Shown in pieces: positions 11,475 through 47,619 of a DNA stretch of 64,000 nucleotides. Below the pieces are notes generated by a model. The model worked only from the letters and a program-made list of their open reading frames with translations. It was not told the DNA's origin and did not search any database. Position numbers and translations under genes: made by a program. Source of the stretch: Buxus sempervirens (taxonomy: Eukaryota > Streptophyta > Magnoliopsida > Buxales > Buxaceae); the NCBI GenBank assembly GCA_947561395.2, contig OX387188.1, forward strand, positions 40,729,942 to 40,793,941, read 5' to 3'. Within the stretch, counting starts at the first letter, position 1, and every line of letters begins with the position of its first letter.

Positions 11475-11475
11475 T

Positions 11476-16915: not shown

Positions 16916-16982
16916 CACTAATCACATCATGCTTGATTGAGAACCAGCAAGGAGAAAGTGGCTCAAAGCTGAATAGCGTTTT

Positions 16983-19900
16983 CCCAATCACCTCCATACT
17001 AAGTCTTATACAGCTAAGGAGAACAAAATTCTTGCAAGCCAAAAATGACAGAGTAAAAAATATCCACTAATCAGCTTTAGTAAGCCTGCTTTACTACCTC
17101 AATAATTAAGACGAACCCCTTGATAGATTAAAAATGTATTCAAGATAGAACAAATATCTAGATCACTTGAAAGGCAAAAATTAAATCTCAAAAATGAAAA
17201 TCTCAATGTCACCAATATCATGGGAATGAAATGTGAGAAATCTCAAACCACTTGCTACCCTCACTTGGGCATTGAAATGATTGTTCTCTTAATGCTTTAA
17301 CTTTCAACTTCTGGCTCAAATATTCTGAAATAATTTTTCTTGTTATCAGAGGAATAGCTTGGTGCATGACGTGATAAAAAAACTACAGTCACAGAATTTT
17401 AAGGGATGAGTATAAAGAATCCATTTCCTATCAGGAGGTTAAATATTGAAAACTTTAACTCATATCATTTCCATTGCGAATATGTTCAAGGGTATTTTTT
17501 AAATATCTTAAACCGAATCACTCTCCTCAAACAACGGAAAATCCTGAAAGTCATAAAAGTCAAGAAGCAACTCAAAGATTCAAATTATAAAGGATATCAA
17601 AGTAAAGAATTTTGACTAAATAAAAAGATCCAATCAAAAACTCCCAAATCATTTAGAGATATTTTGTCAATGTCACCAATAACTACGAACAGATCATCAT
17701 CATCATAAAAATTCAATACCCACCAAAGTTGGGTTAGCGACACGATTCTTGTCTCCATCCCATTCTTATCAAAATCATAACTTCAATTGATTTACATTTT
17801 TGTAAGCCTTGTTTTATAAACTATCTGCAGAACATATCTAGAAAAAAAAATGTGCCAATCACCTCCATACTAACTCATATACAGCTAAGAAGAGCAAAAT
17901 TCTTGCAAGCCAAAAATTACAAAATAAAAAATATCTCCATTTATCAGCTTTACTAAGCCTACTTTGCTACCTCAACAATTAAGATGAACCTCGTGAAAGA
18001 TTCAAAATATATTCAAGATACAACAAATATCTAGATCACTTGAAAGGCCAAAATTTAATCTCAAAATGAAAATCTCAGTGTCACCAATAACAAGGGAATA
18101 AAAGGTGAGAAATCTCAAACCTCTAGCCATCCTCACCTGGGAAATAAAATGATTGTTCTCTTATTTCTTTTCACTTTAAACTTATGGATAAAATATTCTA
18201 CACTAATTTTTCCTGTTATCAGAGGAATAGCTTGGTGCATGATATGATAGATAACCGACTGTTATAGAATTTTAAGAGATGAGCATAAAGAATGCATTTC
18301 CTATCAGGAGGTTAACTATTGAAAAATTTATCTCATATTCTTGCAATTGCGAATATGTTCCTGTGTATTTTTTAAATATCATAAACAGAATAACTCTCCT
18401 CAAACAACAAAAATTCCTGGAAGTCATAAAATTCAAAAAGCAACTCAAGGATTCCAATTATAAAGGATATCGAAATGAGGAATTTTGACTAAATAAAAAG
18501 ATCCAATCGAAAACTTCAAATTCATCAAGAGATTTTTTTGCAATGTCACAAATAGCCACTAGCGGATCATCATCATCATAAAAATTCAATACCCACCAAA
18601 GTCGGGTCAGCAACATGATTCTTGTCTGCATCCCATTCTTATCAAAATCATAACTTCAGTCGATTTGCATTTTTGTAAGCCTGGTTTATTAACCATCAAC
18701 AAATCATATCGATAAAAAATATGCCAATCACCTCCATACTAAGTCTTATACAGAGAAGAAGAGCAATATTCTTGCAAAGCCAAAACAGACAGAGTAAAAC
18801 ATATCTCCACTTATCAACTTTAGTAAGGCTGCTTTGCTACCTCAATAATAAAGATGAACCCCGTGACAAATTAAAAATATATTCAAGATAGAACAAATAT
18901 CTAGATCACTTGAAAGGCCTAAATATAATCTCAAAATTAAAATCTCAATGTCACCAATATCATGGGAATGAAAGGTGCAAATCTCAAACATCTTGCTGTC
19001 CTCACCTGGGCACTAAAATGATTGTTATCTTATTGCTTTTCACTTTCCACTTTTGGCTCAAAATTCTATACAAATTTTTCTTGTTATCAAAGGAATAGCT
19101 TGGTGCATGATGTAATAGATAACCTACTGTAGTAAAATTTTAAGGGATGAGCATAAGAATCCATTTCCTATCAGGAGGATAACTATAGAAAACTTTACCT
19201 CATATTGTTACCACTGTGAAATTGTTCATGTGCATTTTTTAAATATCCTAAATTGAATCACTTTCAACAAACAACAGCAACTCCAAAAAATCATAAAATT
19301 CAAGAAGCAACTCAAAGATTGAAATTATAAAGGATACCGAAGTAATGAATTTTTACTAAATAAAAAGATGCAATCGAAAACTCCCAATTCATTAAGAGAT
19401 TTTTTAGCAATGTCACCATTAACTACCAGCACATCATCATCATCATCATAAAAATTCAATACCACCAAAGTCGAGTCAACAACACGAATCCCGTCTCCAT
19501 CCCATGCTTATCAAAATCATAACTTCAGTTGATTCAAATTTTTCTAAGCCTTGTTTTATTCACCATCAGCAGATCATATCTAGAAAAAATGTGCCAATCA
19601 CCTCCATACTAAGTCTTACACAGCTAAGAAGAGCACAATTCTTGCAAGCCAAAAATGACAGACTAAAAGATATCTCCACTTATCAGCTTTAATAAACCTG
19701 CTTTGCGACCTCAACAATTAAGATGAACACCGTGACGAATTAAAAATATATTCAAGATACAACAAATATCTAGATCACTTTGAAAGGCCAAAATTAAATC
19801 ACAAAACAAAAATCTCAATGTCACCAATATCATGTGAATAAAAGGTGAGAAATCTCAAACCTCTTGCAAACCTCAACTGGGCACTAAAATGATTGTTCTC

Positions 19901-22900
19901 TTATTGCTTTTAACTTTCCACTTCTGGCTCAAATATTCTACGCTAATTTTTCTTGTTATAAGAGGAAAAGCTTAGAGCATGATGTGATAAATAACCTATC
20001 ATTATAGAATTTTAAGGGGTGAGCATAAAGAATCCAATTCCTATTAGCAAGTTAACAATAGAAAACTTTACCTCACATCGTTTCAATTGGGAAATTGTTA
20101 ATGTGTATTTTGTAAATATCTTAAACTGAATAACTCTCCTCAAACAACAAAAACTCCTAAAAGTCATAAAATTCAAGAAGCAACTAAGAGACTCAAATTG
20201 TAAATGACAGCGAAGTAAAGAATTTCGACTAAATAAAAAGATGCAGTCGAAAACACCCAATTCATTAAGAGATTTTTTGGCAATGTCACCAACAACTACC
20301 AGCACATCATCAGCACCAATAAAATTCAATACCCACCAAAGCCGGGTCAATGATACGGATCTTGTCTCCATCCCATTCTTATCAAAATTTTAACTTCCGT
20401 TGATTTACATTTTTGTAAGCCATGTCTTATTAATTATTAGCAGATCATATCTAGAAAAAATGTGCCAATCACCTCCATACTATGTCTTATACAACTAAGA
20501 AGAGATAAATTCTAGCAAGCCAAAAATGACAATAAAAAATATCTCCACTTATCAGCTTTTGCAGGCCTACTTCGCTACTTCAATAAATAAGATGAACCTC
20601 ATGACAAATCTAAAATATATTCAAGATACAACAAATATCTAGATCACTTGAAAGGCAAAAATTTAATCTCAAAATGGAAATCCAACTGTCACCAATATCA
20701 TGGGAATAAAAGGTGAGAAATCTCAAACCCTTTGCCATCCTCACCTGGGAAATAAAATGATTGTTCTCTTATTGCTTTTAACCTTCCATTTCTAGCTCAA
20801 ATATTCTGCACCAATTTTTCTAGTTATCAAAGGAATAGCTTCGTGCATGATGTGATAGATAACCTACTATTATAGGATTTTAAGGGCTGAGCATAAAGAA
20901 TCCATTTCCTATCAAGAGGTTAACTATAGAAAACTTTACCTAAAATCGTTGCCATTGCAAATGTGTTCATGTGCATTTTGAACATATCTTAAACTGAATC
21001 ACTCTCCTCAAACAACAGAAACTCCTAAAAGTCATAAAATTAAAGAAGCAACTCAAAGATTCCTATTATAAAGGATACCGAAGTAAATAATTTTGCCAAA
21101 ATAAAATGATGCAATCCAAAACTCCAAATAAATTTAGAGATTATTTGGCAATGTCACCAATTACGACCAGAAAATATTGATCATAAAAATTCAATAACCA
21201 CCAATGTCTGGTCAATGACACAAATCTGGTCTTCATCCCATTCTTATCAAAATCATAACTTCAGTTGATTTACATTTTTGTAAACCTTGTTTTATTAACC
21301 ATCAACAGATCATATCTAAAAAAATTGTGCCAATCACCTCAAAACTAAGTCCTATAAAGCTAAGAAGAGAAAAATTCTTGCAAGCCAAAAATAACAGAGA
21401 AAAAATATCTCCAGTTATCAGCATTAATAGCCTGCTTTGCTACCTCAATAATTAAGATGAACCCCGTGAAAATTTTAAAATATATTCAAGATACAACAAA
21501 TACCAAGATCACTTGAAAGGCCAAAACTTACTCCAAAAATGAAAATCTCAGTGTCACCAATATCACGGGAATAAAAGGTGAGAAATCTCAAACCTCTTGC
21601 AATCCTCACTGGGGCACCAAAATGATTGTTCTCTTATAGCTTTTCACTTTCCACTTCTGGTTCAAAAATTCTGCTCCAATTTTTCTTGTTATCAAAGGAA
21701 TAGCTTGGGGCATGACGTGACAAATAACCAACTCTTAAAGAATTTTAAGGGATGAGCATAAAGAATCCATTTCCTATAAACAGGTTAACTATTGAAAACT
21801 TTACCTCATATCATCGCCATTGCAAATATGTTCATGTTCATTTTGTACATATCTTAAACAGAATCACTCACCTCAAACAACAGAAACTCCTAAAAGTCAC
21901 AAAACGCAAGAAACACCTCAAAGATTCCAATTATAAAGGTTACCGAAGTAAATAACTTGGCCTAAATAAAAAGATGCAATCGAAAACTCCAAATTCTTTA
22001 AGAGATTTTTCAGCAATGTCACCAATAACTACCAGCAGATCATCATCATCATCAAAATTCAATACCCACCAAAGTCAGACTAGCGACACGAATCTCGTGT
22101 TCCCCCATTCTTATCAAAATAACAATTTCAGTTGATTTACATTTTTGTAAGCCATATTTTATTAACCATCAGCAGATCATATCTAGTAAAAACGTGCCAA
22201 TTACCTTCATATAAGTCTTACACAGCTACAAAGAGCAAAACTCTTCCAAACCAAAAATGACACAATAAAAAAATCTCCACTTATCAACTTCAGTAAACCT
22301 GCCTTACTACCTAAATAATTAAGATGAACCCCGTGACAGATTTAAAATATATTAAAGATACAACAAATAACTAGATCTCTTAAAAGGCCATAATTTAATC
22401 CAAAAATGAAAATCTCAATGTCACCAATATCATGGGAATAAAAGGTGAGAAATCTCAAACCTCTTGCTATCCACACCTCGGCACCATAATGATTGTTCTC
22501 TTATTGCTTTTCACTTTCAACTTCTGGCTCAAATATTCTGCACCAATTTTTCTTGTTATCCGAGGAATAGCTTGGTACACGATGTGAAAGATAACCTACT
22601 CTTAAGGAATTTAAAGGGATGAGCATAAAGAATCCATTTCCTATCACGCGATTAACTATTGAAAACTTTACCTCATATCGTTGCCATTGGGAATATGTTC
22701 ATGTGCATTTTGTACATATCTAAAACTGAAACACTCTCCTCAAACAACAGAAACTCCTAAAAGTCATAAAATTCAAGATGCCACTCAAAGATTCCAATTA
22801 TAAGGATACTGAAGTAAGAATATTGCCAAAATAAAAAGATGTAATCGAAAACTCCCAATTCATTTAGAGATTTTTTGGCAATGTGACCAATAACTACCAG

Positions 22901-25442
22901 CGGATAATCATCATCATAAAAATTCAATACCCACCAAAGTCGAGTTAGCGACACAAATCTTGTGACCACCCCATTCTCATCAAAATCACAACCTCAGTTG
23001 ATTTACATTATTGTAAGCCTTATTGTATTAACCATCAGCAGATTATATCTAGTAAAGATGTGCCTATCACCTTCATGCTAAGTCTTAAATAGCGAAGAAG
23101 AGCAAAATTCTTGCAAGCCAAAAATGCCACAGTAAAAAATATCTCCACTTATCATCTTCAATAAGCCTACTTTACTACCTCAATAATTAAGATGAACCCC
23201 GTGACAAATTAAAAACATATTCAAGATACAACAAATATCTAGATCACTCAAAAGGCAAAAATTTAATCTCAAAATAAAAATCTCAGTGTCACCAATATCA
23301 TGGGAATAAAAGATGAGAAATCTCAAACCTCTTGCCATCCTCACCCAGGAAAAAAATGGTTGTTCTCTTACTGATTTTAACCTTCCACCTCTAGCTAAAA
23401 TATTCTGAACTAATTTTTCCTGTTATCAGAGGAATAGCTTGGTGCATGATGTGATAGATAACCTACTACTATAGAATTTTAAGGGATAAGCATAAAGAAT
23501 AAATTCCCTATCATGAGGTTAACTACTTGAAAACTTTACCTCAAATAGTTGCGATTACGAATATGTTCAATTGCATTTTATGCATATCTTAAACTGAATC
23601 ACTCTCCTCAAACAACAGAAACTCCCAAAAGTAAAAAAATTCAAGAAGCAACTCAAATATTCCAATTATAAAGGATACCGAAGTAAAAGAATTTTAACGA
23701 AATAAAATGATGCAATTTAATTCTTGGGAATGTCACCAATAACTACTAGCAGATCGTCATCATCATAAAAATTCAATACCCACCAAAGCTGGGTCAGCGA
23801 CACGATTCTTGTCTCCATCCCATTCTAATCAAAATCATAATTTCAGTTGATATACATTTTTGTAAGCCTTGTTTTATTAACAATCAGCAAATCATATTTA
23901 GAAAAAATGTACCAATCACCACCATACTAAGAATTATACAACTAAGAAAAACAATAATCTTGCAAGCCAAAAAAGACAGTAAAAAATATCTCCACTAATC
24001 AGCTTTAGTAAGCCAGTATTGCTACCTCAAAATTAAGATGAACCCCGTGATAGATTAAAAATATATTCAAGATAGGACAAATATCTAGAAAACTTGGAAG
24101 GCCTGAATATAATCTAAAATGAAAATCTCAGTGTTGCCAATATCATGGGAAAAAAAGGTGAGAAATCTCAAACCTCTTGCCCTCCTCACCTGGGCACTAA
24201 AATGATTGTTCCCTTATTGCTTTTAACTTTCCACCTCTAGCTCAAATATTTTGCACCAATTTTTCCTGTTATCAGAGGAATAGCTCGATGCATAATGTGA
24301 TAGAAAACCAACTGCTATAGAATTTAAAGGGCTACGCATAAAGAATCCACTTCCTATCAGGCGGCTAACTGCAGAAAACTTTACCCCATATCGTTGCCAT
24401 TGCAAATATGTTCATGTGCATTTTGTACATATCTTAAACTAAATCACTCTCCTCAAACTACAGAAACTCTCAAAAGTCATAAAATTCAAGAAGCAACTCA
24501 AAGATTCCAATTACACAGGTTATCGAAGCAAAGAATTTCCCCTAAATAAAAAGATGCAATCGAAAACTCCCAATTCATTTAGAGATTTTTTGGTAATGTC
24601 ACAAATTATGACTAGCGGATCATGATCATCATAAAAATTCAATAACCACCAATGTCGGTTCAATGACAAAAATCTTGTCTCCATCCCCTTCTTATCAAAA
24701 TCATAACTTCATTTCATTTACATTTCTATAAGCCTTGTTTTATTAACCATCAGAAGATCATATCTTGAAAAAATGTGTCAATCACCTCCAAACTAAGTCC
24801 TATACAGCAAAGAAGAGCAAAATTCTTGCAAACCAAAAATGACAAAAAATATAACTCCACTTATCCGCAATAATAGCCTGCTATGTGACCTCAATAATTA
24901 AAATGAAACCCGTGACAGATTTAAAATATATTCAAGATACAACAAATATCTAGATCACTTAAAAGGCATAAACTTAATCCCAAAATGAAAATCTCAATGA
25001 CAATAATATCATAGGAATAAAAGGAGAGAAATCTCAAACCTCAAGCTATCCTCACCTGGGCAGCAAAATGATTGTTCTCTTATTGCTTTTCACTTTCTAC
25101 TTCTGCCTCAAATATTCCGCACCAATTTTTCTTGTTATCAGAGGAATCGCTTGGTACATGATGTGAAAGATAACCTACTGTTGTAGAATTTTAAGGGATG
25201 AGCATAAAGAATCCATTTCCTATCACGAGGTTAACTATCGAAAAGTTTACCTTGTATCGTTGCCATTGAGAATATGTTCATGCGCATTTCATACATATCT
25301 TAAACAGAATCACTCTACTCAAAAGACAGAAACTCCTAAAAGTCAATAAAAAAAGAACTAAAAGATTCCAATTATACAGGTTATCGAAGCATAGAATTTT
25401 GCCTAAATAAAATGATGCAATCGAAAACACCCGATTCATTTA
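16983..25442. repeat. Satellite subfamily 1 domain (left)
   Basis: Most monomers here have AATACCCACCAAAGTCGGGT, GATTTACATTTTTGTAAG, CCTCCATACTAAGTCTTATA and TTTAGTAAGCCTGCTTTGCT. At the same positions the core of the array has AATAACCACCAATGTCGGGT, CATTTACATTTCTGTAAG, CCTCCAAACTAAGTCCTATA and TTTAATAGCCTGCTTTGCG. A few monomers are mixed (near 21,190 and 24,640 the ACCAATGTC variant appears). The last array segment at 45,200-45,480 returns to subfamily 1. Confidence 0.75.
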
Positions 25443-26851
25443 GGCCCCGATTGGTCAAGGAATTGTGGGGTGAAATTGGGGTAAGAATTGGAATTGGGTT
25501 CTCAATTCCAATTCTTTTGATTGGTTGGATTTTTTAAAATTAGAAATGGAATTGTAACTCAATTCCGTAGAATTCACTTTCAAGCTATTTTGAAGAGTAC
25601 CTAATTCCCTCCTAAATAGAGGAGAAGTCAGGATTTAGTACGAGGAATTAGGCCACTCGATAAAAAGAAGCTATCAACTTTTAAGCCATCGACTTTCTTT
25701 CTTGTTTGCTGCCGAGTGTTGCAGTTGCAGGTAATGGCAGTGGTGTCTTCCCTTCTATTCTCTCCCCTCATCTCTCTCTCTTTCAATCTATATTTTTCTC
25801 CCCTTCCCCCTCCCTGGTCCTCTTTCAATCTTCTGTTTTCTTGTACAGGTTTTTTTTCTTTCTTCTTATTGGACTTGAGGGTTTTAGAAGTAGGCGAGAA
25901 CGGAGGATCGTAATCGATGCTATCAAACGGGGACCCCAATTGCGTTAAAAAACGAGAGTTGCATAAAAGCGATGGAGGTAATAGATTACGAGATACACAT
26001 AGGTTTAGGGTTTGAGATATCAAGTGACGCCACAACTGGAGCTTCGGCATGCATTAAAGCAACCGGAAGTACCATTCTCGCTGGAAACAAATCGGGTTCT
26101 ATTTCTATATTGAGGAGGCTAACAAGCTCATGTTTTGTATTTATAGTATTTATTTTTGGTGTGTAGTACATTCCTTCGTCAAGCCTTCATTTTGTGCCCT
26201 TTCTCTCCATTCTTTGTCTGTTGTGTTACAATGGAAAAAATATTTTTCTTATTTTTTAAGAAGAAATAAAAAAATAAAAAAAGAGAAGGTCGGAAGTGGT
26301 AGTACACTACCGGTTTGTGAATTCTGCAAAGAGAAGAAGTAAGCATTTTGGCTTTTCTTAATGGTGAGAAGAAGAGGGAATGTCGTACAGGCGGCGTACT
26401 TGAAACTCTCCACAAACCCCTGGAAAGCTTGCGTTTTATATTCATTTTTTCACCAATATCTCATTCGGTCTCTCAGTTTGATTAAATTGCCAACTGGTCT
26501 GTTCTTGTTCTCCAAATCTAAGTTTTAGTTTGAATTCAGAGGCAGAGTGATTCGTGATTTGCTATGATTGTATTCTAGAAGACTTCATTGGGCTTATGGG
26601 ACTGATAAGAATATCAATAATAAAATATAATTAACTAAAGTACTACAACATTGTAATTGAATTTTAGAAGTTTATCCAATCAATAAAATTGAAATTTATA
26701 TCAATTCTTTATGAAATTGTAATTCCAAATTTCAATTCTTTTATCATCCAATCATAAGAATTGTAATTCTACCCAATTCTAATTCTTATTGAATTGGAAT
26801 TGTAATTCAAATTCTTAATTAAAATTCCAATTCATCGAACCAATCGAAGCC
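25443..26851. mobile_element. PIF/Harbinger-type non-autonomous element carrying gene-like sequence
   Basis: It interrupts a satellite monomer exactly within CATTTAGAGATTTTTTGG. The left end is GGCCCCGATTGGTCAAGGAA; the right end, reverse-complemented, is GGCTTCGATTGGTTCGATGAA. Both are flanked by TTA (25,440-25,442 and 26,852-26,854), the 3-bp target duplication typical of PIF/Harbinger. Subterminal zones are dense in GAATTGGAATT-type motifs. The interior (about 25,570-26,600) is unlike either end: pyrimidine-rich leader-like text, then an ATG at 25,972 opening a 64-codon frame starting MEVIDYEIHIGLGFE with a hydrophobic end. No transposase is visible. Confidence 0.85.
25972..26166 (+). pseudogene. 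Gene-like fragment inside the Harbinger element
   Basis: This is a 64-codon open frame. Its first ~50 residues look protein-like (contains ATGSTILAGNKSGSISIL, reminiscent of a beta-propeller strand pair); the end (CFVFIVFIFGV) looks like translated intron. It follows a CT-rich leader-like segment (25,740-25,880). I infer capture of the 5' end of a host gene, but I do not recognise the donor. It could simply be a chance frame. Confidence 0.35.
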
Positions 26852-29800
26852 TTAGTGATTTTTTGGCAATGCCAAAGATTACGACAAGCGGATCATCATC
26901 ATCATAAAAATTCACTAACCACCAACGTCGTGTTAACAACACACGTCTTGTCTCCATCCCATTCTTATCAAAATCACAACTTCAGTTCATTTACATTTAA
27001 GTAAACCTTGTTTTATTAACCATCTGCAGATCATATATAGAAAAAAAAATTGTCAATCACCTCCAAACTAAATCCATACAGCAAAGAAGAGCAAAATTCA
27101 TGCAAGTCAAAAATGACACAAAAAATATCTCCACTAATCAGCTTTAATAGCCTGCTTCGCGACCTCAATAATTAAGATGAAACCATTGACAGATTTAAAA
27201 TATTTTCAAAATACAACAAATATCTACATCACTTGAAAGGCATAAATTTAATCACAAAATGAAAATCTCAGTGTCACAAAAATCATGGGAATAAAAGTTG
27301 AGAAATCTCAAACCTCTAGCTATCGTCACCTGGGCACAAAAATGATTGTTCTCTTATTGATTTCAACTTTCCATTTCCGGCTCAAATATTCTGCACCAAT
27401 TCTTCTCGTTATCAGAGCAATAGCTCAGTGCACGATTTGAATATAAACCTACCGTTGTAGAATTTAAAGGGGTGAGCATAAAGAATCCATTTCCTATCAC
27501 GAGGTTAACCATTGAAAAGTTTACCTCACATCGTTGCCAGTGAGAATATGTTCCCGTGCATTTTGAACATATCTTAAACAGAATCACACATCAAAAAACA
27601 GAAACTCCAAAAAGTCATAAAATTCAAGAAGCAACTCAAAGATTCGAATTACACAGGTTACAGTACCAAAGAATTTCGCATAAATAAAAAGAGCAAAAAA
27701 AACTCCCAATTCATTTAGACATTTTTTGCCAATATCACATATTATGACTATCAGATCACCATCATCATAAAAATTCAATAACCACCAATGTCGGGTCAAC
27801 GACAAGAATCCTGTCTCCATCCCATTCTTATATAAATCATAACCCCAGTTCATTTACATTTATGTAAACCTTGTTTTACTAACAATCAGCACATCAAATC
27901 TAAAAAAATGTGTCAATCACCTCAAAACTAAGTCCTATACAGCTAAGAAGAGCAAAATTCTTAAAAGTCAAAAATGACAGAAAAAATATCTCCACAATCA
28001 ACTTTAATGCCCTGCTTTGCGACCTCAAAAATTAAGATGAACCCCGTGACAGATTTAAAATATATTCAAGATACAAAAAATATCTAAACCACTTGAAAGG
28101 CATAAATTTAATCCCACAATGAATATCTCAACATCACCAATACCATGGGAATAACAAGTGAGAAATCTCAAACCTCTAGCAACCCTCACCTGCGCACCAA
28201 AATGATTGTTCTCATATTTCTTTTCACTTTCCACTTCTTGTTCAAATATTCTGCACCAATTTCTCTTGTTATCAGAGGAATAGCTTCGTGCATGATGTGA
28301 CAGAAAACCTACTGTTGTAGAATTTTAAGGGATGAGCACAAAGAATCCATTTCCTATCACGAGGTTAACTATTGAAAACTTTACCTCATAACGTTGCAAT
28401 TGAGAGTATGTTCATGTGCATTTTGTACATATCGTAAACTGAATCACTCTCCTCAAACAACAGAAACTCCCAAAAGTCAGAAAAATCAAGAAGCAACTCA
28501 AAGATTCCAATTACAGACGTTACCCAGGTAAAGAATTTCGCCTAAATAAAAAGATGCAATCGAAAACTCCCAATTCATTTAGAGATTTTTTGGCAATGTC
28601 ACCAATTACGACCAGCAGATCATGATCATCATAAAAATACAATAACAACCAATGTCGGGTCAACGACACAAATTTTGTCTCCATCCCATTCTTATCAAAA
28701 TCATAACTTCAGTTCATTTACATTTCTGTATGCCTTGTTTTATCAAACATCAACAGATCATATCTAGAAAAAATGTCACTCACCTCCAAAAAAAATCCTG
28801 TACAGCTAAGAAGAACAAAATTCTAGAAAGTCAAAAATGACAAAGAAAAAATATCTCCACTTATCAACTTTAATAGCCCGCTAAGCGACCTCAATAATTA
28901 AGATAAAACCCGTGACAGATTTAAAATATATTCAAGATACAACAAATATCTAGATCACTTGAAAGGCATAAATTTAATCCAAAAATGAAAATCTCAATGT
29001 CACCAATATCATGAGAATAAAAGTTGAGAAATCTCAAACCTCTACCTATCGTCACCTGGGCACCAAAATGACTGTTCTCCTATTGCTTTTAAATTTCAAC
29101 TTCTGGCTCAAATATTGTGCACCAATTGTTCTTGCTATCAGAGGAATAGCTTGGTGTATGATGTGACAGATAACCTACTATTGTAGAATTTTAAGGGATG
29201 AGCATAAAGAAACCAATTCCTATCACGAGCATAACTATTGAAAACTTTACCTCATATCGTTGCAATTGAAAATATGTTCATGTGCATTTTGTACATATCC
29301 TAAACTGAATCACTCTCCTCAAACAACAGAAACTCCAAAAAGTCATAAAATTCAAGAAGCAACTCAAACATTCCAACTACACAGATTATCGAAGTAAAGA
29401 ATTTCACCTAAATAAAAAGATGCAATCGAAAACTTCCAATTCATTTAGAGATTTTTTGGCAATGTCACCAATTACGACCAGCAGATCATGATCATCATAA
29501 AAATACAATAACAACCAATGTCGGGTCAACGACACAAATTTTTTCTCCATCCCATTCTTATCAAAATCATAACTTCAGTTCATTTACATTTCTGTATGCC
29601 TTGTTTTATCAAACATCAGCAGATCATATCTAGAAAAAATGTGTCACTCACCTCCAAAAAAAATCCTATACAGCTAAGAAGAACAAAATTCTAGCAAGTC
29701 AAAAATGACAGAAAAAATATCTAAACTTATCAGCTTTAATAGCCCGCTTTGCGACCTCAATAATTAAGATATAACCAGCGACAGATTTAAAATATATTCA

Positions 29801-32800: not shown

Positions 32801-35800
32801 TGGCTCAAATATTCTGCACCAATTTTTCTTGTTATCAGACGCAAAGCTTGGTGCATGATGTGACACATAACCTACTGTTGTAGAATTTTAAAGGATGAGT
32901 ATAAAGAATACATTTCCTATCACGAGGTTAACTATTGAAAACTTTACCTCATATCGTTGCCATTGCGAATATGTTCATTGCATTTTGTACCTATCTTAAA
33001 CTGAATCACTCTCCTCAAACAATAGAAATTCCTAAAAGTCATAAAATTCAAGAAGCAACTCAAAGATTCCAATTACAATGGTTACCGAAGTAAAGAATTT
33101 CACCTAAATAAAAAAGTTAATCAAAAACTCCCAATTAATTTAGAGATTTTTTGGCATTGTCAGCAATTACGACCAGCAGATCATTATCATCATAAAAATT
33201 CAATAACAACCAATGTCGGGTCAGCAACAAAAATCTTGCCTCCATCCCATTCTTATCAAAATCATAACTTCAGTTCGTTTACATTTCTGTCAGCTTCGTT
33301 TTATTAACAATCAGCAAATCATATCTAGAAAAAATGTGCCAATCACCTCCAAACTAAGTCCAACAAAGCTAAGAAGAGCAAAATTCTTGCAAATCAAAAC
33401 TAACACAAAAAAAATATCTCCACTTATAAGCCTTAATAGATTGCCGTGCAACCTCAATAATTAAGACATAATCCGTGACAAATTTAAAATATATTCAAGA
33501 TACAACAAATATCTCCATCACTTGAAAGGCATAAATTTAATCCCAAAATGAAAATCTCAGTGTCACCAATATCATGGGAATAAAAGGTGAGAAATCTCAA
33601 ACCTCTAGTTATCCTCACCTGGGCTCCAAAATGATTGTTCTTTTATTGCTATTCACTTTCCATTTCTGGCCCAAATATTCTGCACCAATTTTTCTTGTTA
33701 ACAGAGGAATAGCTTGATGCATGTGACACATAACCTCCTGTTGTAGAATTTTAAGTAATGAGCATAAAGAATCCATTTCCTATCACGGGGTTAACAATTG
33801 AAAATTTTACCTCATATCGTTGCCATTGCAAATATGTTCATGTGCATTTTGTACATATCTCAAACTGAATCACTATCCTCAAACAACAGAAACTCCTAAA
33901 AGTCATAAAATTCAAGAAGCAACTCAAAGATTGCAACTATACAGGTTACCGAAGTATAGAATTTTTCCTAAATAAAATGATGCAATCGAAAACTCCCAAT
34001 TCATTTAGAGATTTTTTGGCAATGTCACATATTATGACCAGCGGATCATCATCATCATAAAAATTCAATAACCACCAATGTCGAGTCAACGACACAAATC
34101 TTGTCTCAATCCCATTCTCATCAAAATCGTAACTGCAGTTCATTTACATTTCTTTAACCCTTAATTTATGAAGCATTAGCAGATCATTTCTAGAAAACAT
34201 GTGTCAACCACCTCCAAACTAAGTCCTATACAACTAAGAAGAGCAAAATTCTTGCAAGTCAAAAATGACAGAGAAAAAATTTATCTGCACAGGCTTTAAT
34301 AGCCTGCTTTTCGACCTCAACAATTCAGATGAAACTCGTGACAGATTTAAAATATCTTTAAGAAACAGCAAATATCTAGTTCACTTGGAAGGCAAAAATT
34401 TAATCTCAAATCGAAAATATCAGTGTCACCAATATCATAGGAATGAAATGTGAGAAATCTCAAACGTCTAGCTATCCTCACCTGGGCACCAAAATGATTG
34501 TTCTCTTATTGTTTTTCACATTCTACTTCTTGCTCAAATATTCACAACCAATTTTTCCTGTTATCAAAGGAATAACTTGGTGCATGATGTGACAGATAAC
34601 CTACTTTTGTAGAATTTTAAGGGATGAGCATAAAGAAACCATTTCTAGTCACGAGGTTAACTATTGAAAACTTTACCTCATATCGTTGTCATTGTGAATA
34701 TGTTCATGTGCATTTTGTACATATCCTAAACTGAATCACTCTCCTCAAACAACAGAAACTCCAAAAAGTCATAAAATTCAAGAAGCAACTCAAACATTCC
34801 AACTACACAGATTATCGAAGTAAAGAATTTCACCTAAATAAAAAGATGCAATCGAAAACTCCCAATTCATTTAGAGATTTTTTGGCAATGTCACATATTA
34901 CGACCATCGGATCATCATCATCAAAAAAATTCATTAACCACAAATGTCAGGTCAACGACACAAATCTTGTCTCCATCCCATTCTTATCAAAATCATAAAT
35001 TCAGTTGATTTACATTTCTATAAGCCTTGTTTTATTAACCATCAGCAGATGATATGTAGAAAAAATGTAACAATCCCTTCCAAACTAAGTCCTATACTGC
35101 TCAGAAGAGAAAAATTCTTGCAAGTCAAAAATGACAGAGAAAACATATCTCCACTTATTAGCTTTAATAGTCCACTTTCCGAACTCAATAATTAAGATAT
35201 AACCCATCAGAGATTAAAAATATATTCAAGATACAACAAATATCTAGATCACTTGAAAGACATAAATTTAATCCCAAAATGAAAATCTCAATATCACCAA
35301 TATCATGGGAATACAAGGTAAAAAATCTCAAACCTCTAGCTATCCTCACCTAGCAACCAAAATGATTTTTCTCTTATTGCTTTTCACTTTCTACTTCTTG
35401 CTCAAATATTTTGCCCCAATTTTTCTTGTTATCAGAGGAATAGCTTGGTGCATCATGTCACAGATAACCTACTGTTGTAGAATTTTAGGGGTTGAGCATA
35501 AAGAATCAATTTCTTATCACGAGGTTAACAATTGAAAACTTTACCTTATATCATTGCCATTGCGAATATGTTCATGTGCATTTTGTACATATCTTAAACT
35601 GAATCACTCTCCTCAAACAACAGAAACTCCAAAAAGTCTTAAAATTCACGAAACAACTCAAGGATTCCAATTACACGGATCACCGAAGTAAAGAATTTCG
35701 CCTAAATAAAAAGATGAAATCGAAAACTCCCAATTCATTTAGAGATTTTTTTCCAATGTCGCATATTACGACGAGCAGATCATCATCATCATAAAATTCA

Positions 35801-38800
35801 ATAACCACCAATGTCAGGGTCAACGACACAAATCTTGTCTCAATCCCATTCTTATAAAAATCTTAACGTCCATTCATTTACTTTTCTTTAAGCCTTGCTT
35901 TATTAAGCATCAGTAGATCATATCTAGAAAAAATGTGTCAATAACCACCAAACTAAGTCCTATACAGCTAAGAAGAGCAAAATTCTTGCAAGTCAAAAAT
36001 GACCAAAAAAAAAATTTATCTCCACTTATCAACTTTAATAGCCTGCTTTGCAACCTCAAAAATTAAGATGAAACCCATGAAAGATTTAAAATATATTCAA
36101 GATACAACAAATATCTAGATCACTTGAAAAGCATAAATTTTTAATCCCAAAATGAAAATCTCAATGTCACCAATATCATGGCAATAAACTGTGACAAAAT
36201 CTCAAACCTCTTGCTCTCCTCACCTGGGCACTAAAATGATCTCTTATTGCTTTTCACTTTCCACTTTTGGCTCAAATATTTTGCACCAACTTTTCTTCTT
36301 ATAAGAGGAACAGCTTGGTGCATGATATGATAGATAACCTACTGTTATAGAATTTTAAGGGATGAGCATAAAGAATCCATTTCCTATCAGGAGGTTAAAT
36401 ATTGAAACCTTTACCTCATATCGTTGTCATTGCTAAAATGTTCATGTGCATTTTGTACATATCTTAAACTGAATCACTCTCCTCAAACAACACAATCTCC
36501 TAAAAGTCAAAAAATTCAAGAAGCAACTCAAAGATTCCTACCATAAAGAATACCAAAATAAAGAATTTTGCCTAAATAAAAAGATGCAATCAAAAACTCC
36601 GAATTCATTTAGAGATTTTTTGGCAATGTCACCAATTACGACCAACGGATCATCATCATCATAAAAATTCAATAACCACCAATGTCGAGTCTAAGACACA
36701 AATCTTGTCTCCATCCCATTCTTATAAAAATGATAACTTCAGTTGATTTACATTTTTGTAAGCCTTGTTTTACTAACCATCAACAAATCATATCTAGGAA
36801 AAATGTGCCAATCACCACCAAACTAAGTCCTATACAGGTAAGAAGACCAAAATTCTTGCAATGCAAAAAATGACATCAAAAACATATCTCTACATATCAG
36901 CTAATGTAAGCCTGCTTTGCTACCTCAATAATTAAGAAGAACCCCATGACAAATTTAAATATATTTAAGATACAACAAATATCTAGATCACTAAAAATTC
37001 CTAAATTTAATCCCAAAATGAAAATCTCAGTGTCACCAATATCATGGGAATAAAAGGTGAGAAATCTCAAACCTCTTACTATCCTCACCTGACCACCAAA
37101 ATGATTGTTCTCTTATTGATTTTAACTTTCCACTTCTGACTTAAATATTCTGCACCAATTTTTCTTGTTATCAGAGGAGTAGCTTGGTGCATGATGTGAC
37201 ACATAACCTACTGTTGTAGAATTTTAACGAATGAGCATGAAGAATCCATTTCCTATCACGAGGTTAACTATTGAAAACTTTACCTCATATCGTTGCCATT
37301 ATGAATATGTTCATGTGCATTTTGTACATATCTTAAACAGAATCACTCTCCTCAAACAATAGAAACTCTTAAAAGTCAAAAAATTCAAGAAGAAACTCAA
37401 ATATTCCAATTACGCAGGTTACCAAAGTAAAGAATTTCACTTAAATAAACAGAGGTAATCAAAAACTCCCAATTCATCTCGAGATTTTTTGGCAATGTCA
37501 CCAATTACGACCAACGGATCATGATCGTCATAAAAATTCAATAACCACAATTGTCGGGTCACCAACACAAATCTTGCCTCCATCACATTCTTATCAAAAT
37601 CATAACTTCAGTTCATTTACATTTCTATAAGCCTCGTTTTATTGACAATCAGCAGATCATATCAAGAAAAAATGAGTCAATCACCTCCAAACTAGGCCCT
37701 ATACAGCTAAGAAGAGCAAAATTCTTGCAACTCAAAAATGATAGAGAAAAAATATCTCCACTTATCAGCTTTAATAGCCCGCTTTGCGACCTCAATAATT
37801 AAGATATAACCCGTCAGAGATTTAAAATATATTCAAGATACAACAGATATCTAGATCACTTGAAATGCATAAATTTAATCCCAAAAAAAAATCTCAATGT
37901 GACCAATATCATGGGAATAAAAGGTAAAAAATCTCAAACCTCTAGCTATCCTCACCCGGGCACCAAATGATTGTTCTCTTATTGCTTTTCACTTTCCACT
38001 TCTTGCTCAAATATTCAGCACCAATTTTTCTTGTTATCAGAGGAATAGCTTGGTGCATCATGTGACAGATAACTTACTGTTGTAGAATTTAAAGGGTCAA
38101 GCATAAAGAATCCATTTCCTATAACGAGGTTAACAATTAAAAACTTTATCTCATACCGTAGCCATGGCGAATATGTTCATGTGCATTTTGTACATATCTT
38201 AAACAGAATCACTCTCCTCAAACAACAGAATCTCCTAAAACTCATAAAATTCAAGAAGCAACTCAAGGATTCCAATTACACAGGTTACCGAAGTAAGGAC
38301 TTTCGCCTAAATAAAAAGATGTAATCGAAAACTCTGAATTCATTTAGAGATTTTTTGGCAATGTCACATAATACGACCAACGGATCATCATCATCATAAA
38401 AATTCAATAACCATCAATGTCGGGTCAACAACACAAATCTTATCTCGATCCCATTCTTATCAAAATCATGACTTTAGTTCATTTACTTTTCTATAAGCCT
38501 TGCTTTATTAAACATCAGTAGATCATATCTAGAAAAAATGTGTCAATCACCTCCAAACTAAGTCCTACACAACTAACAAGAGCAAAATTCTTGCAAGTCA
38601 AAAATGGCAGAGAAACAATTATCTCCATTTATCAACTTTAATAGCCTGCTTTGCGACCTCAATAATGAAAATGAAACTCGTGACAGATTTAAAATATATT
38701 TAAGATACAACAAATATCTAATTCACTCGAAAGACAAAAATTTAATCCCAAAACGAAAATCTCAGTGTCACCAATATCATACGAATAAACGGTGAGAAAT

Positions 38801-41800
38801 CTCAAATCTCTAGCTATCCTCACCAAGGAACCAAAATGATTGTTCTCTTATTGCATTTCACTTTCCAATTCTTGCTCAAATATTCTGCACCAATTTTTCT
38901 TGTTATTAGAGGAATAGCATGGTGCATGATGTGACAGATAACCAACTATTGTACAATTTTAAGGGGTGAGCAAAAAGAATCCATTTCTTATCACGAGGTT
39001 AACTATTGAAACCTTTGCCCCATATCGTTGCCATTGCGAATATGTTCATGTGCATTTTGTACATATCTTAAACTGAATCACTCTCTCCAAACAAAAGAAA
39101 CTCCTAAAAGTCATAAAATTCAAGAAGCAACTCAAAGATTCCTATTATAAAGGATACCGAATTAAAGAATTTGGCCTGAATAAAAAGATGCAATCGAAAA
39201 CTCCCGATTCATTAAAAGATTTTTTGGCAATGTCACATATTACGACCATCATGATCATAAAAATTCAATAACCACCAATGTCGGGTCAACGACACAAATC
39301 TTGTCTCCATCCCATTCTTATCAAAATCATAACTTCAGTTCATTCACATTTCTGTAAGCCTTGTTTTATAAACCATCAGCGGATCATATGTAAAAAAAAT
39401 GTAACAATCACTTCCAAACTAAGTCCTATTCAGCTAAGAAGAGCAAAATTCTTGCAAGTCAAAAATGACAGAGATGGATCCATATATCAGCTTTAATAGC
39501 CTGCTTTGCGACCTCAATAATTAAGATGGAACCTGTGAAAGATTTGAAATATATTCAAGATACAACAAATATCCAGATCACTTGAAAACCATAAATTTAA
39601 TCCCAAAATGAAAATCTCAATGTCACCAATATCATGGGAATAAAAGGTGAGAAATCTCAAACCTATACCTATCCACACCTTGTCACCAAAATGATTGTTC
39701 TCTTATTGCTTTTCACTTTCCACTTCTGGCTCAAATATTCTGCACCAATTTTTCTTCTTATCAGAGGAATAGCTTCGTGCATGATGTGACACATAACCTA
39801 CTATTGCAGAATTTTAACGGATGAGCATAAAGAATCGATTTCCTATCACGAGGTTAACTATTGAAAACTTTACCTCATATCGTTGCCATTGCGAATATGT
39901 TCATGTGCAATTTGTACATATCTTAAACCGAATCACTCTCCTCAAACAACAGAAACTCCTAAAAGTCAAAAAATTCAAGAAGCAACTCAAAGATTCCTAT
40001 TATAAAAGATACCAATATGAAGAATTTGGCCTAAATAAAAAGATGCAATCAAAAATTCCCAATTAATCAAGAGATTTTTTCGCAATGTCACCAACTACGA
40101 CCAACGGATCATCATCATCATAGAAATTAAACTTCAGTTCATTTACATTTCTAAAAGCCTCGATTTATTGACAATCAGCAGATCATATCTAGATAAAACG
40201 TGTCAATCACCACTAAACTAAGTCCTATACCACTAAAAGGGCAAAATTCTTGCAAGTAAAAATTGACAGAAAAAAATATATCTCCACTTATAAGCTTTAA
40301 TAACCCGCTTTGCGACCTTAATAATTAAGGAATAACCATTGAGATTTAAAATATATTCAAGATACAACAAATATCTAGATCACTTGAAAGGCATAAATTA
40401 AATCCCAAAGTGAAAATCACAGTGTCACCAATATCAAGGGAATAAAAGGTGAGAAATCTCAAACCTCTAGTTATCCTCACCTGCGCACCAAAATGATTGT
40501 TCTCTTATTGCTTCACTTTCTACTTCTAGCTCAAATATACTGCACCAATTTTTCTTGTTATCAGAGGAATAGCTTGGTGCATGATGCGACAAATAACCTA
40601 CTGTTGTAGAATTTTAAGGGTTGAGCATAAAGAATCAATTTCCTATCACGAGGTTAACAATTGAAAACTTTACCTCATATCGTTGCTATTGCGAATATGT
40701 TCATGTGGATTTTGTACATATCTTAAACTGAATCACTCTCCTAAAATAAGAGAAACTCCTAAAAGTCATAAAATTCAAGAAGCAAATCAAAGATTCCAAT
40801 TACAAAGGTTACCGAAGTAAAGAATTTCGCCTAAATAAAAAGATGTAATCGAAAACTCCCAATTCATTTCGAGATTTTTAGACAATGTCACATATTACGA
40901 CCAGCGGATCATCATCATCATAAAAATTCAATAACCACCAATCTCGGGTCAACAACAAAAATCTTGTCTCGATCCCATTCCTATCAAAATCATAACTTCA
41001 GTTCGTTTACTTTTCTGTAAGCCTTACTTTATTAAGCATTACTAGATCATATCTAGAAAAAATGTGTCAATCACCTCCAAACAAAGTCCTATACAGCTAA
41101 GCAGAGCAAAATTCTTACAAATAAAAATGACAGAAAAAAAATATCTCCACTTATCAACTTTAATAGCCTGCTTTGCGACCTCAATAATAAAGATGAAACC
41201 CGTGACAGATTTCAAATATATTCATGATACAACAAATATCTAGATCAATTGAAAGGCATAAATTTTTATTCCCAAAATGAAAATCTCGATGTCGCCAATA
41301 TCATGGTAATCTCAAACATCTTGCTATCCTCACCTGGGCACCAAAATGATTGTTCTCTTATTGATTTTCACTTTCCACTTCTGGCTCAAATATTCTGCAC
41401 CAATTTTTCTTGTTATCAGAGGAATAACTTCGTGCATGATGTGACAGATAACTACTGTTGTAGAATTTTAAGGGATGAGCACAAAGAATCCATTTCCTAT
41501 CACAAGGTTAACTATTGAAAACTTTACCTCATAACGTTGCAATTGAGAATATGTTCATGTGCATTTTGTACATATCGTAAACTGAATCACTCTCCTCAAA
41601 CAACAGAAACTCCCAAAAGTCAGAAAAATCAAGAAGCAACACAAAGATTCCAATTACAGAGGTTACCCAGGTAAAGAATTTCGCCTAAATAAAAAGATGC
41701 AATCGAAAACTCCCAATTCATTTAGAGATTTTTTGGCAATGTCACCAATTACTACTAGCGGATCATGATCATCATAAAAATACAATAACAACCAATGTCG

Positions 41801-44800
41801 GGTCAACGACACAAATTTTGCCTCCATCCCATTCTTATCAAAATCATAACTTCAGTTCATTTACATTTCTGTATGCCTTGTTTTATCAAACATCAGAAGA
41901 TCATATCTAGAAAAAATGTCACTCACCTCCAAAAAAAATCCTATACAGCTAAGAAGAACAAAATTCTAGCAAGTCAAAAATGCCAGAGAAAAAATATCTC
42001 CACTTATCAACTTTAATAGCCCGCTAAGCGACCTCAATAATTAAGATAAAACCCGTGACAGATTTAAAATATATTCAAGATACAACAAATATCTAGATCA
42101 CTTGAAAGGCATAAATTTAATCCAAAAATGAAAATCTCAATGTCACCAATATCATGGGAATAAAAGTTGAGAAATCTCAAACCTCTACCTATCGTCACCT
42201 GGGCACCAAAATGACTGTTCTCCTATTGCTTTTAAATTCCAACTTCTGGCTCAAATATTGTGCACCAATTGTTCTTGCTATCAGAGGAATAGCTTGGTGT
42301 ATGATGTGACAGATAACCTACTATTGTAGAATTTTAAGGGATGAGCATAAAGAAACCAATTCCTATCACGAGCCTAACTATTGAAAACTTTACCTCATAT
42401 CGTTGCAATTGAAAATATGTTCATGTGCATTTTGTACATATCCTAAACTGAATCACTCTCCTCAAACAACAGAAACTCCAAAAAGTCATAAAATTCAAGA
42501 AGCAACTCAAACATTCCAACTACACAGATTATCGAAGTAAAGAATTTCACCTAAATAAAAAGATGCAATCGAAAACTCCCAATTCATTTAGAGATTTTTT
42601 GGCAATGTCACATATTACGACTAGCGGATCATCATCATCATAAAATTCAATAACCACCAACCTCAGATCAACGACACACAACTTGTCTCGATCCCATTCT
42701 TATCAAAATCATAACTTCAGTTCATTTACATTTCTGTAAGCCTTGTTTTATTAACCATCTGCAGATCATATATAGAAAAAATGTGTCAAACACCTCCAAA
42801 CTAAGTCCTATACAGCTAAGAAGAGCAAAATTCTAGCAAGTCAAAAATGACAGAAAAAATATCTCCACTTATCAGCTTTAATAGCCTGCTTTGCGACCCT
42901 AATAATTAATATGGAACCCGTGAAAGATTTGAAATATATTCAAGATACAACAAATATCCAGATCACCTAAAAAGCATAAATTTAATCCCAAAATGAAAAT
43001 CTCAGTAACACCAATATCATGGGAATAAAAGGTGAGAAATCTCAAACATCAACCTATCATCACCTGGTCACCAAAATGATTGTTCTCTTATTGCTTTTCA
43101 CTTTCCACTTCTAGCTCAAATATTCTACACCAATTTTTCTTCATATCATACGAATAGGTTGGTGCATGATGTGACAAATAACCTTCTATTGCATAATTTT
43201 AGGGGACGAGCATAAAGAATCCATTTCCTATCACGATGTTAACTATACAAACTTTACCTCATATCGTTGCCATTGAGAATATGTTCGTGCGCACTTTTCA
43301 CATGTCTTAAATTGAATCACTCTCCTCAAACAACAGAAACTCGCAAAAGTCATATAATTCAAGAAGCAACTCAATGATTCCAATTACACGGGTTACGGAA
43401 GTAAAGAATTTCGCCTAAATAAAAAGATGCAATCGAAAACTCCCAATTCATTTAGAGATTTTTTGGCATTGTCACAAATTACGACCAACGGATCACGATC
43501 ATAATAAAAATTCAATAACCATCAATGTCGGGTCAGCGACACAAATCTTGTCTCCATCCCATTCTTATCAAAATAATACCTTCAGTACATTTACAATTTT
43601 GTAATCCTTGTTTTATTCACAAACAGCATATCATATCTCAAAAAAATGTGTCAATCACCTCCAAACTAAATCCTATGCAGCTTAGAAGAGAAAAATTCTT
43701 GCAAGTCAAAAATGACAGAGAAAAAATATCTCCACTTATGAGCTATAATAGCCTACTATGCAACGTCAAAAATTAAGATGAAACCCGTAACAGATTTAAA
43801 ATATTTTCAAGATACAACAAATATCTAGATCACTTGAAAAGCATAAATTTAATCCCAAAATGAAAATCCCAGTGTCAACGATATCATGGGAATGAAAGTT
43901 GAGAAATCTCAAACCTCTACCTATCGTCACCTGGGCACCAAAATGATCGTTCTCTTATAGCTTTTAACTTTCCCCTTCCAGCTCAAATATTTTGCACCAA
44001 TTCTTCTTGCTATCAAAGAAATAGCTTGGTGTATGATGTGACAGATGACCTACTGTTGTAGAATTTTAAGGGGTGACAATAAAGAATCCATTTCCAATCA
44101 CAAGGTTAACTATTGAAAACTTTACCTCATATCGTTGCAATTGAGAATATGTTCATGTGCACTTTGTACATATCTTAAACTAAATCACTTTCCTCAAACA
44201 ACAGAAACACCAAAAAGTCATAAAATTCAAGAAGCAACTCAAAGATTCCAATTACACAGGTTACCAAAGTAAAGAATTTCGCCTAAATAAAAAGATGCAA
44301 TCGAAAAAGTCCCAATTCATTTAGAGATTTTTTGGCAATGTCACCAATTACGACCAACGGATCATCATCATCATAAAAATTCAATAACCACCAATGTCGA
44401 GTCTAAGACACAAATCTTGTCTCTATCCCATTCTTATCAAAATGATAACTTCAGTTGATTTACATTTTTGTAAGCCTTGATTTATTAACCATCAACAGAT
44501 CATATCTAGGAAAAATGTGCCAATCACCACCAAACTAAGTCCTATACAGCTAAGAAGACCAAAATTCTTGCAATGCCAAAAATGACATCGAAAACATATC
44601 TCTACTTATCAGCTAATGTAAGCATGCTTTGATACCTCAATAATTAAGATGAACCCCATGACAGATTTAAATATATTCAAGATACAACAAATATCTAGAT
44701 CACTTAAAATTCCTAAATTTAATCCCAAAATGAAAATCTCAGTGTCACCAATATCATGGGAATAAAAGGTGAGAAATCTCAAACCTCTTACTATCCTCAC

Positions 44801-45200
44801 CTGGGCACCAAAATGATTTTTCTCTTATTGCTTTTGACTTTCCACTTCTGGTTCAAATATTCTGCACCAATTTTTCTTGTTATCAGAGGAATAGCTTTGT
44901 GAATCATGTGACAGATAACCTACTGTTGTAGAATTTTAAGGGATGAGCATAAAGAATCCATTTCCTATCAGGAGGTTAACTATTGAAAACTTTACCTCAT
45001 ATCGTTGCCATTGCAAATATGTTCAATTGCATTTTGTACATATCTTAAACTCAATCACACTCCGCAAACAACAGAAACTCTTGAAAGTCATAAAATTCAA
45101 GATGCAACTCAAGGATTACAATTATAAAGGATACCGAAGTAAAGAATTTTGACTAAATAAAATGATGCAATCAAAAACTCCCAATTCAGTTAAAGAATTT
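26852..45200. repeat. Satellite subfamily 2 domain (core), with higher-order structure
   Basis: Monomers share ACCACCAATGTCGGGTCAA, TTCATTTACATTTCTGTAAG, AACTAAGTCCTATACAGC and CTTTAATAGCCTGCTTTGCGA. Private variants recur at fixed spacing. TTTACTTTTCT.TAAGCCTT occurs at about 35,878, 38,484 and 41,004, and CGTCAGAGATT-type variants at about 35,200 and 37,810. This is about 2.6 kb, or three monomers. Longer segments are duplicated at a distance: 28.26-29.46 kb with 41.40-42.61 kb, 31.0-32.25 kb with 43.1-44.3 kb, and 36.62-37.10 kb with 44.34-44.80 kb. Confidence 0.75.
30558..30822 (-). mobile_element. 5'-truncated LINE 3' end inserted in the satellite
   Basis: A T12 tract at 30,558-30,569 starts the insert. 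On the minus strand it reads ERNNRIFENKERSRDAL, the classic end of plant L1 ORF2, then a short C-terminal tail, a leader-like 3' region and poly(A). The satellite resumes at CTTATCAGC (30,823). About 38 bp of the monomer expected at the junction is absent and no target duplication is seen, so insertion was accompanied by a small target deletion. Confidence 0.85.
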
Positions 45201-45565
45201 TTGGCAATGTCACCAATAACTACCAGCGGATCATCGGCATCATCATAAAAATTCAATACCCACCAAAGTCGGGTCAGTGACACGAATCTTGTGTCCATCC
45301 CATTCTTATCAAAATAACAACTTCAGTTGATTTACATTTTTTTAAGCCTTATTTTATTAACCATCAGTAGATCATATCTAGTAAAAATTCTTGCAAGCCA
45401 AAAATGACACAATAAAAAATATCTTCCCTTATCAGCTTCAATAAGCCTGCTTTACTACCTCAATAATTAAGATGAACCCTTCGACAAATTAAAAAGATAT
45501 TCGTGGTAAAACAAATATCTCGATCACTTGAAAGGCCTAAATATAATTTCAAAATGAAAATCTCA

Positions 45566-47330: not shown

Positions 47331-47344
47331 ATTATATTGTAGCG

Positions 47345-47619
47345 GCGTTCAGGGAGAGCACCCCCCGGTCTTGGCTTTACATTTCCGGGCGTCAGCTTGT
47401 TCGTCCCGGTGATGGGGTAGAGGAGCCATCAAGGGCGAAATCGAAGTCGGCCCCGATGGGTTGCGAGTCCAGCCGTCAAGAGCAAGAGAGGGATCAAAGG
47501 GAGGGTCGATCAGGTGGTTGGGGAGGAGCGAAAGAGGTTTTCGTGCCAAACCGTCTGCACTAAAGGGGAAAAATCCCATATCAAAGAAAATTAAGCCGTC
47601 GAACAGACGATTAGAGACT
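47345..47619. other. GC-rich segment between promoter motifs and leader exon
   Basis: A minus-strand open frame of 136 codons spans 47,349-47,759, but it begins upstream of the telo-box, has no recognisable domain and owes its length partly to GC content. It may be part of a longer 5' leader. I do not call a protein here. Confidence 0.4.

What the first reader, a model, noticed from the sequence alone, without database searches (positions are those of the whole stretch)
16983..45565. A 28.6 kb satellite of about 31 monomers with an unusually long 0.87 kb unit
Plant satellites mostly have 150-180 or 300-370 bp units. Here about 31 head-to-tail copies of a 0.86-0.87 kb unit sit between ordinary genes and LINE debris rather than in an obviously centromeric setting. 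The unit is AT-rich, keeps most of its length in every copy, and has no similarity I can name.
Basis: seen in the sequence. Interest (0 to 1): 0.7.

Follow-up and report, generated by a model that had tools for sequence, protein, structure and literature searches.

The report
Long-unit satellite riding duplicated chromosome blocks
The 31-copy, 868-base tandem repeat is real; it is a small plant satellite away from the centromere that most likely grew from one stretch of non-coding DNA holding the tail of a jumping gene and was then copied to other chromosomes inside large duplicated blocks, a good birth-stage example of a known kind of repeat.

Summary
Confirmed: 28 complete and 3 interrupted head-to-tail copies of an ~868-bp AT-rich unit (mean identity 85.6%), plus a 180-bp end piece, at 16986-45565. 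The array lies inside a duplicated block (window ~384-50689). At least seven related blocks, each with its own array (9.7-34 kb), sit on C1, C10, C11 (two), C12, C19 and C22, in the outer 3-17% of these sequences. The array ends read stop at the same unit position, and five last monomers match the window's last monomer better than its own neighbours do; C11a's does not. So the array probably predates most block copying. The unit is not anonymous: it holds the 3' end of an RTE-type LINE next to a segment shared with two other loci. Four single-copy relatives on C10 at 37.75-37.84 Mb form a separate cluster; two keep a spacer that also follows the arrays but is missing from the 28 complete window units. 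Best reading: a passenger tandem repeat, grown by recombination, spread by segmental duplication. Known kind; modest interest.

The parts
384..50689 (.). Duplicated block that carries the array; related blocks on C1, C11 (two), C12, C19, C22
   Evidence: In C1, C11b, C12, C19 and C22 BLAST homology starts at 384 and stops at 50687-50689; C11a starts at 790 in BLAST and shares the right side to 53186 (edges aligned)
16986..45565 (+). Tandem array: 28 complete plus 3 interrupted ~868-bp units and a 180-bp end piece
16986..17856 (+). First monomer (phase 1 of the consensus)
17459..17622 (-). Within the unit (consensus ~469-627): segment shared with C1:48.68 Mb (L010) and C19:34.80 Mb (L009)
   Evidence: 80.6% and 83.0% identity for this monomer, up to 87.7% for another
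17693..17822 (-). Within the unit (consensus 708-836): 3' end and (ATG)n tail of an RTE-type LINE
   Evidence: 82-84% identity to dispersed copies L011-L013; frame of L011 computed; the RTE label is recalled
25443..26851 (.). Insertion in a monomer with inverted ends and a TTA target duplication (PIF/Harbinger-like, recalled label)
   Evidence: array C11a has an insert with related ends at the same unit position
30560..30822 (-). Short insertion that starts with a T-run, read by eye as a truncated L1-type LINE 3' end
27915..29645 (+). Two-monomer stretch duplicated inside the array (partner 41069-42787)
   Evidence: 93.9% and 96.7% identity at 13.1-13.2 kb distance, mean of all pairs 85.6%
41069..42787 (+). 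Partner of 27915-29645; sign of unequal exchange or conversion inside the array
44522..45387 (+). Last complete monomer; 90.8-93.3% identical to last monomers of C1, C12, C19, C22 and an internal end in C11b, at best 89.6% to its own array
45566..46593 (+). Spacer that follows unit position ~219 at the array ends; also in single-copy relative L018 and, for its first ~100 bp, in L020; absent from the 28 complete units
16541..16921 (+). LINE remnant (zinc-binding RT region, below the Pfam cut-off) beside the left edge of the array
   Evidence: zf-RVT E 0.0068, 17.5 bits, cut-off 27.5

Best explanation
It is a minor, non-coding tandem repeat (about 0.02% of the genome) that travels as a passenger. 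Steps, with status. (1) An ancestral non-coding stretch held an RTE-LINE 3' end next to a segment also found at C1:48.68 Mb and C19:34.80 Mb (shown as sequence). (2) The unit existed once, as 'A-spacer-B', as at C10:37.77 Mb (seen in L018, partly in L020; that this is the older state is inferred). (3) A form without the spacer became tandem next to the original, so the array reads (AB)n followed by one spacer-bearing unit (structure seen; order of events, and slippage or a circle as intermediate, inferred). (4) The array grew and shrank by unequal exchange or conversion (a duplicated two-monomer stretch is seen; mechanism inferred). (5) The block with its array was copied between chromosomes at least six times, four copies being ~98% identical (copies shown; how they moved is not). 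No function of its own is needed.
For: Array and unit. Seven arrays, 122 pattern matches, control 0. Arrays end at unit position ~219 in 6 of 6 ends read (window; C11a; C1, C12, C19, C22) and at an internal end in C11b; in 4 of these 6 (C1, C12, C19, C22) unit piece 212-265 follows the spacer. Flanks of C1, C19, C22 and (left side) C11b 97.5-98.6% identical over the long stretches. Right of the C1 block, 9.35 kb finds no co-linear partner near the C11, C19 or C22 blocks beyond about 1.05 kb. Last monomers pair across chromosomes. LINE 3' end. Single-copy relatives with the spacer; they cluster apart from 43 monomers. No coding signal: longest open frame per monomer 52-125 aa in 28 monomers; 200 shuffles of 10 of them give 69 +/- 16, maximum 134.
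Against: The tree is unrooted; I placed the root at the four single-copy relatives, so it shows that they cluster apart, not that they are older; they could be collapsed arrays. It has no support values in my output, and 4 of the 5 added last units repeat sequences already among the 43 monomers. The best match of the C11a end monomer (a part of it) is an inner window monomer (90.0%), not the last (89.2%), and the wider group of last units also holds three other monomers; first monomers of the window and C12 do not pair with those of C1, C19, C22 and C11b. The window and C11a lack the piece 212-265 after the spacer, as far as read. The spacer may have been gained early and lost later. The array is not poorer in CpG than both its flanks (0.54 against 0.32 left, 0.59 right). 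No expression, methylation or CENH3 data.
Confidence: 0.7

Rival explanations
1. The block itself is a giant non-autonomous mobile element (tens of kb) and the array is its internal tandem-repeat region, as in Helentrons or Ogre elements.
For: The same ends relative to the window in five copies; a ~282-bp sequence in the same orientation at both ends of C11b, C19 and C22; the C1 right end repeats left-end sequence over about 1.05 kb; four copies ~98% identical on four chromosomes.
Against: By eye no target-site duplication, inverted ends or LTR-like pair of fixed length at the edges; edges differ between copies (window and C11a against the rest on the right; C1 lacks the left 282-bp copy); no transposase among 10 proteins scanned, but the blocks were not read in full.
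Confidence: 0.12
2. The arrays are conserved positions from whole-genome duplication rather than later copying.
For: Copies on different chromosomes with, by eye, a similar order of unit variants in C1, C11b, C19 and C22.
Against: Homology stops at the block edges; the ~98% group spans four chromosomes and C11 holds two different copies.
Confidence: 0.05
3. Functional heterochromatin or centromere-related satellite.
For: AT-rich, long unit, like long-monomer satellites of Vicia faba, mostly pericentric (PMC5895790, passages).
Against: About 106 kb genome-wide by the pattern count; positions at 83-97% of the length of C1, C10, C11, C12, C22 and 6% of C19.
Confidence: 0.05
4. Tandemly repeated Helitron parts (rolling-circle arrays).
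For: Many partial units followed by one fuller unit recalls arrays of truncated Helitrons (Xiong et al., as told in PMC12628747, passages).
Against: The unit holds a LINE tail and other shared non-coding DNA; no Helitron end was recognised by eye at the unit junction, but no dedicated search was run.
Confidence: 0.03

Closest known systems
Long-monomer plant satellites (Vicia faba, rye B chromosomes, Solanum; PMC5895790, passages seen)
   Same: Tandem arrays with monomers of 0.7-5.4 kb; the V. faba ones mostly AT-rich
   Different: The V. faba ones studied amount to 1.1-365 Mb; this one is about 0.1 Mb in small arrays in outer parts of chromosomes
Satellites grown from transposable-element parts (PMC12628747, passages; PMC7004042, abstract and passages)
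   Same: Unit contains part of a retroelement that is also dispersed
   Different: Only about 130 of 868 bp is LINE 3' end; the carrier is a duplicated block, not an intact element
Satellite-like arrays carried by Helentrons of the Pacific oyster (PMC7492417, listing and start of abstract only)
   Same: Small arrays dispersed with a larger carrier
   Different: Carrier is tens of kb and no transposon ends were found

Membership tests
Satellite / long-unit tandem repeat | Head-to-tail copies of one unit over tens of kb | tested here: met
Satellite / long-unit tandem repeat | High genomic abundance in long (100 kb or more) arrays | tested here: not met
   122 pattern matches; arrays 9.7-34 kb by their ends
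Centromeric satellite | CENH3 association | not testable with these tools
   no ChIP data
Centromeric satellite | Large arrays at the constriction of most chromosomes | tested here: not met
   7 loci on 6 sequences, all in the outer 3-17%; centromere positions themselves unknown
TE-derived satellite | Unit shares sequence with dispersed transposable elements | tested here: met
   consensus 708-836 in L011-L016, the six loci fetched for this match, which also resemble one another beyond it (listing cut at 200 rows)
Giant mobile element | Target-site duplication and defined termini | tested here: not met
   edges of 7 copies (inner) and 4 copies (outer) aligned, none seen by eye
Interchromosomal segmental duplication | Large high-identity blocks on different chromosomes with unrelated outer flanks | tested here: met

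The most novel reading that the evidence does not exclude
The block is a very large composite mobile element of plants, bounded by direct terminal sequences and able to move about 32-66 kb of mixed LINE, gene-fragment (a DEAD-box helicase piece that looks like eIF4A) and satellite DNA between chromosomes; the satellite array is a stable part of its cargo and expands or shrinks after each move.
Probability: 0.12. Interest if true: 0.7.

Novelty: new member of a known kind. Interest (0 to 1): 0.33.

Why it matters
It may show several stages of the birth of a plant satellite in one genome: single-copy relatives, end units that keep a spacer, amplified units without it, and seven arrays of different length whose end monomers partly correspond. 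That makes it a usable test case for how tandem repeats start and whether arrays change length before or after copying. It also warns that an array that seems to lie between genes may be part of a duplicated block.

Tried and rejected
Rejected: centromeric satellite (positions, small amount); coding repeat (open frames as in shuffles); RNA gene cluster (no Rfam match at gathering cut-offs; no tRNA or tmRNA); sub-repeats of the unit; assembly artefact (seven loci with differing arrays, not a depth test). At first I took the spacer after unit position 219 for an insertion in the last monomer; L018 and the start of it in L020 have it too, so this was revised. A transposon edge with target duplication was looked for by eye and not found. 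A paper search for an 868-bp plant satellite gave 0 papers; five other searches listed general work on satellites and genome assemblies. The species was not identified.
Full report
Observation. The first unit, aligned to the window, gives 34 rows from 16986 to 45565 on one strand: 28 complete monomers (849-871 bp) and 6 rows from three interrupted or shortened monomers and an end piece. Repeated 14-mers are spaced by 864-870 bp and multiples, and partners 820-920 bp apart occur only in this stretch. The 28 complete monomers (6 of 34 rows left out) give an 868-bp consensus, mean pairwise identity 85.6%, range 81.2-96.7%. So about 31 copies is right. The tandem-repeat program did not report the array; its longest period is 500 bp.

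Inside the array. Two neighbouring monomers at 27915-29645 recur at 41069-42787 with 93.9% and 96.7% identity, as unequal exchange or conversion would leave. The nine complete monomers left of the first interruption have no partner above 88%. One monomer is split at 25443-26851 by an element with inverted ends and a TTA duplication, another at about 30560-30822 by a short insertion that starts with a T-run (family labels recalled). The longest open frame per monomer is 52-125 aa; 200 letter shuffles of 10 monomers give 69 +/- 16 aa, maximum 134. Rfam and tRNA scans of the window are empty. CpG observed/expected is 0.54 in the array, 0.32 left and 0.59 right of it, so the array is not specially depleted.

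Genome. The window is C10:40729942-40793941 of a 676.5-Mb genome in 247 contigs. A unit 27-mer matches 122 times with up to 3 mismatches, control 0; of 100 places listed, 99 are in arrays on C1 (63.49-63.51 Mb), C10 (window), C11 (41.08 and 42.72-42.75), C12 (36.14-36.16), C19 (2.15-2.16) and C22 (27.37-27.39), and 1 is at C10:37.755; 22 are not listed. At 868 bp each this is about 106 kb, 0.016% of the genome, a lower bound. By the contig lengths the loci lie in the outer 3-17% of their sequences. C1 begins with telomere repeats; the listing shows no other contig. Other arrays could be missed, because DNA searches score only the best candidates.

The block. The 6 array ends read stop at unit position ~219 (window; C11a; C1, C12, C19, C22) and run into the same ~1.0-1.2-kb spacer; in 4 of the 6 (C1, C12, C19, C22) unit piece 212-265 follows it. 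In the window the homology breaks at 46593, where another dispersed repeat follows. Flanks align between loci: C1, C19, C22 and (left side) C11b at 97.5-98.6% over the long stretches; the window to C12 and C11a mostly 87-97%, and to the first group mostly 83-95%, with lower values in internally repeated parts. Homology to the window starts at 384 and stops at 50687-50689 in five loci; C11a starts at 790 in BLAST and goes on with the window to 53186, about 32-34 kb in all. The C1/C19/C22/C11b group runs on to the right into a helicase gene piece (DEAD, E 1.5e-10 for a fragment read by eye; frame computed; eIF4A by recall). A ~282-bp sequence beyond it also lies, in the same direction, at the left end of C11b, C19 and C22, though not seen at that of C1; this gives spans of 54-66 kb. 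Beyond about 1.05 kb right of the C1 block there is no co-linear partner near the C11, C19 or C22 blocks, only short weak matches elsewhere. No target duplication or inverted ends were seen by eye. These are interchromosomal duplicated blocks; whether they move as one element is open. C11b holds two array parts with a 0.62-kb spacer copy between them.

Age of the array. The last complete window monomer is 90.8-93.3% identical to the last monomers of C1, C12, C19, C22 and an internal end in C11b, but at best 89.6% to its own array. First monomers of C1, C19, C22 and C11b also pair. Against this: the C11a end monomer (part) is closest to an inner window monomer (90.0%; 89.2% to the last), and the first monomers of the window and C12 do not pair with the others. 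In a tree of 43 near-complete monomers, 5 last units (4 of them repeats of sequences among the 43) and 4 single-copy relatives, the last units of the window, C1, C19, C22 and C11b group together; that of C11a lies next to them in a wider group with three other monomers; C12's last unit was too short to be included. I read this as: the array is older than most of the block copying.

Where the unit came from. Consensus 708-836 (minus strand) matches six dispersed loci on C4, C6, C9, C11, C19 and C21 (L011-L016). The L011 frame reads ...RWFGHVKKKPRGAPVR...WRDKIRVADPTLVGT, with one stop inside, followed by an (ATG)n tail, which I recognise from memory as the end of plant RTE-type LINEs; Pfam has no match for it. 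Next to the tail, consensus ~469-690 matches C1:48.68 Mb (L010), which has a short LINE tail at the same junction, and C19:34.80 Mb (L009), which lacks it. L009 differs further to the left, so it is not proven to be an empty site. Four single-copy relatives at C10:37.755-37.838 Mb (L017-L020; median identity to monomers 78-80%, among themselves 84-87%) share about 3 kb of left flank with one another; L018 also shares the right flank of the arrays, at 68-85% by stretch. L018 carries the spacer between unit positions 199 and 212, and L020 its first ~100 bp; L017 and L019 break off earlier. So L018 holds the unit once, from 263 through 868 to 199, then spacer, then 212 to 264. The 28 complete window units lack the spacer; its place is flanked by an 8-bp direct repeat in C1 and C22, shorter in C12 and L018 (by eye). 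The tree puts the four relatives in one cluster apart from the monomers; I rooted it there, so it does not by itself prove that they are older.

Reading. The simplest order is: single copy with spacer; a spacer-less form becomes tandem next to it; growth by recombination; copying of the block with the array. The order of the first two steps is inferred. Known kinds cover this: long-monomer satellites (PMC5895790, passages) and satellites from element parts (PMC12628747, passages; PMC7004042, abstract and passages).

Noticed in passing
58294-58668: Exon of a mitochondrial porin (VDAC) gene, Porin_3 E 7.3e-33, outside the duplicated block.
   Followed up: no
59059-60404: LINE remnant with zinc-binding RT and RNase H-like domains; 59342-60443 has copies of up to 97% identity on C1 and 96% on C12, so the family looks fairly young.
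   Followed up: no
8509-9577: Two LINE pieces in opposite directions (endonuclease start by eye on minus, no Pfam match; RVT_1 on plus); this stretch matches the C12 block but no match is listed in the C1, C19, C22 or C11b blocks (24 of 737 candidates scored).
   Followed up: no
15005-15514 and 16145-16527: Two-copy tandem duplications of 255 and 194 bp left of the array; left flanks of other blocks show related, rearranged internal repeats.
   Followed up: partly
49904-50353: 149-aa lysine/glutamate-rich open frame, also open in C12, no Pfam match.
   Followed up: no
L048:2121-3076: This ~955-bp stretch left of the C22 block recurs at 93% just right of it, at C22:27396818-27397784; part reads by eye like a shikimate dehydrogenase gene.
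   Followed up: no
L022:1055-2251: Array C11a has an insert at the same unit position as the window's 25443-26851 insert; only the ends are alike, so one event or repeated use of the site is open.
   Followed up: partly
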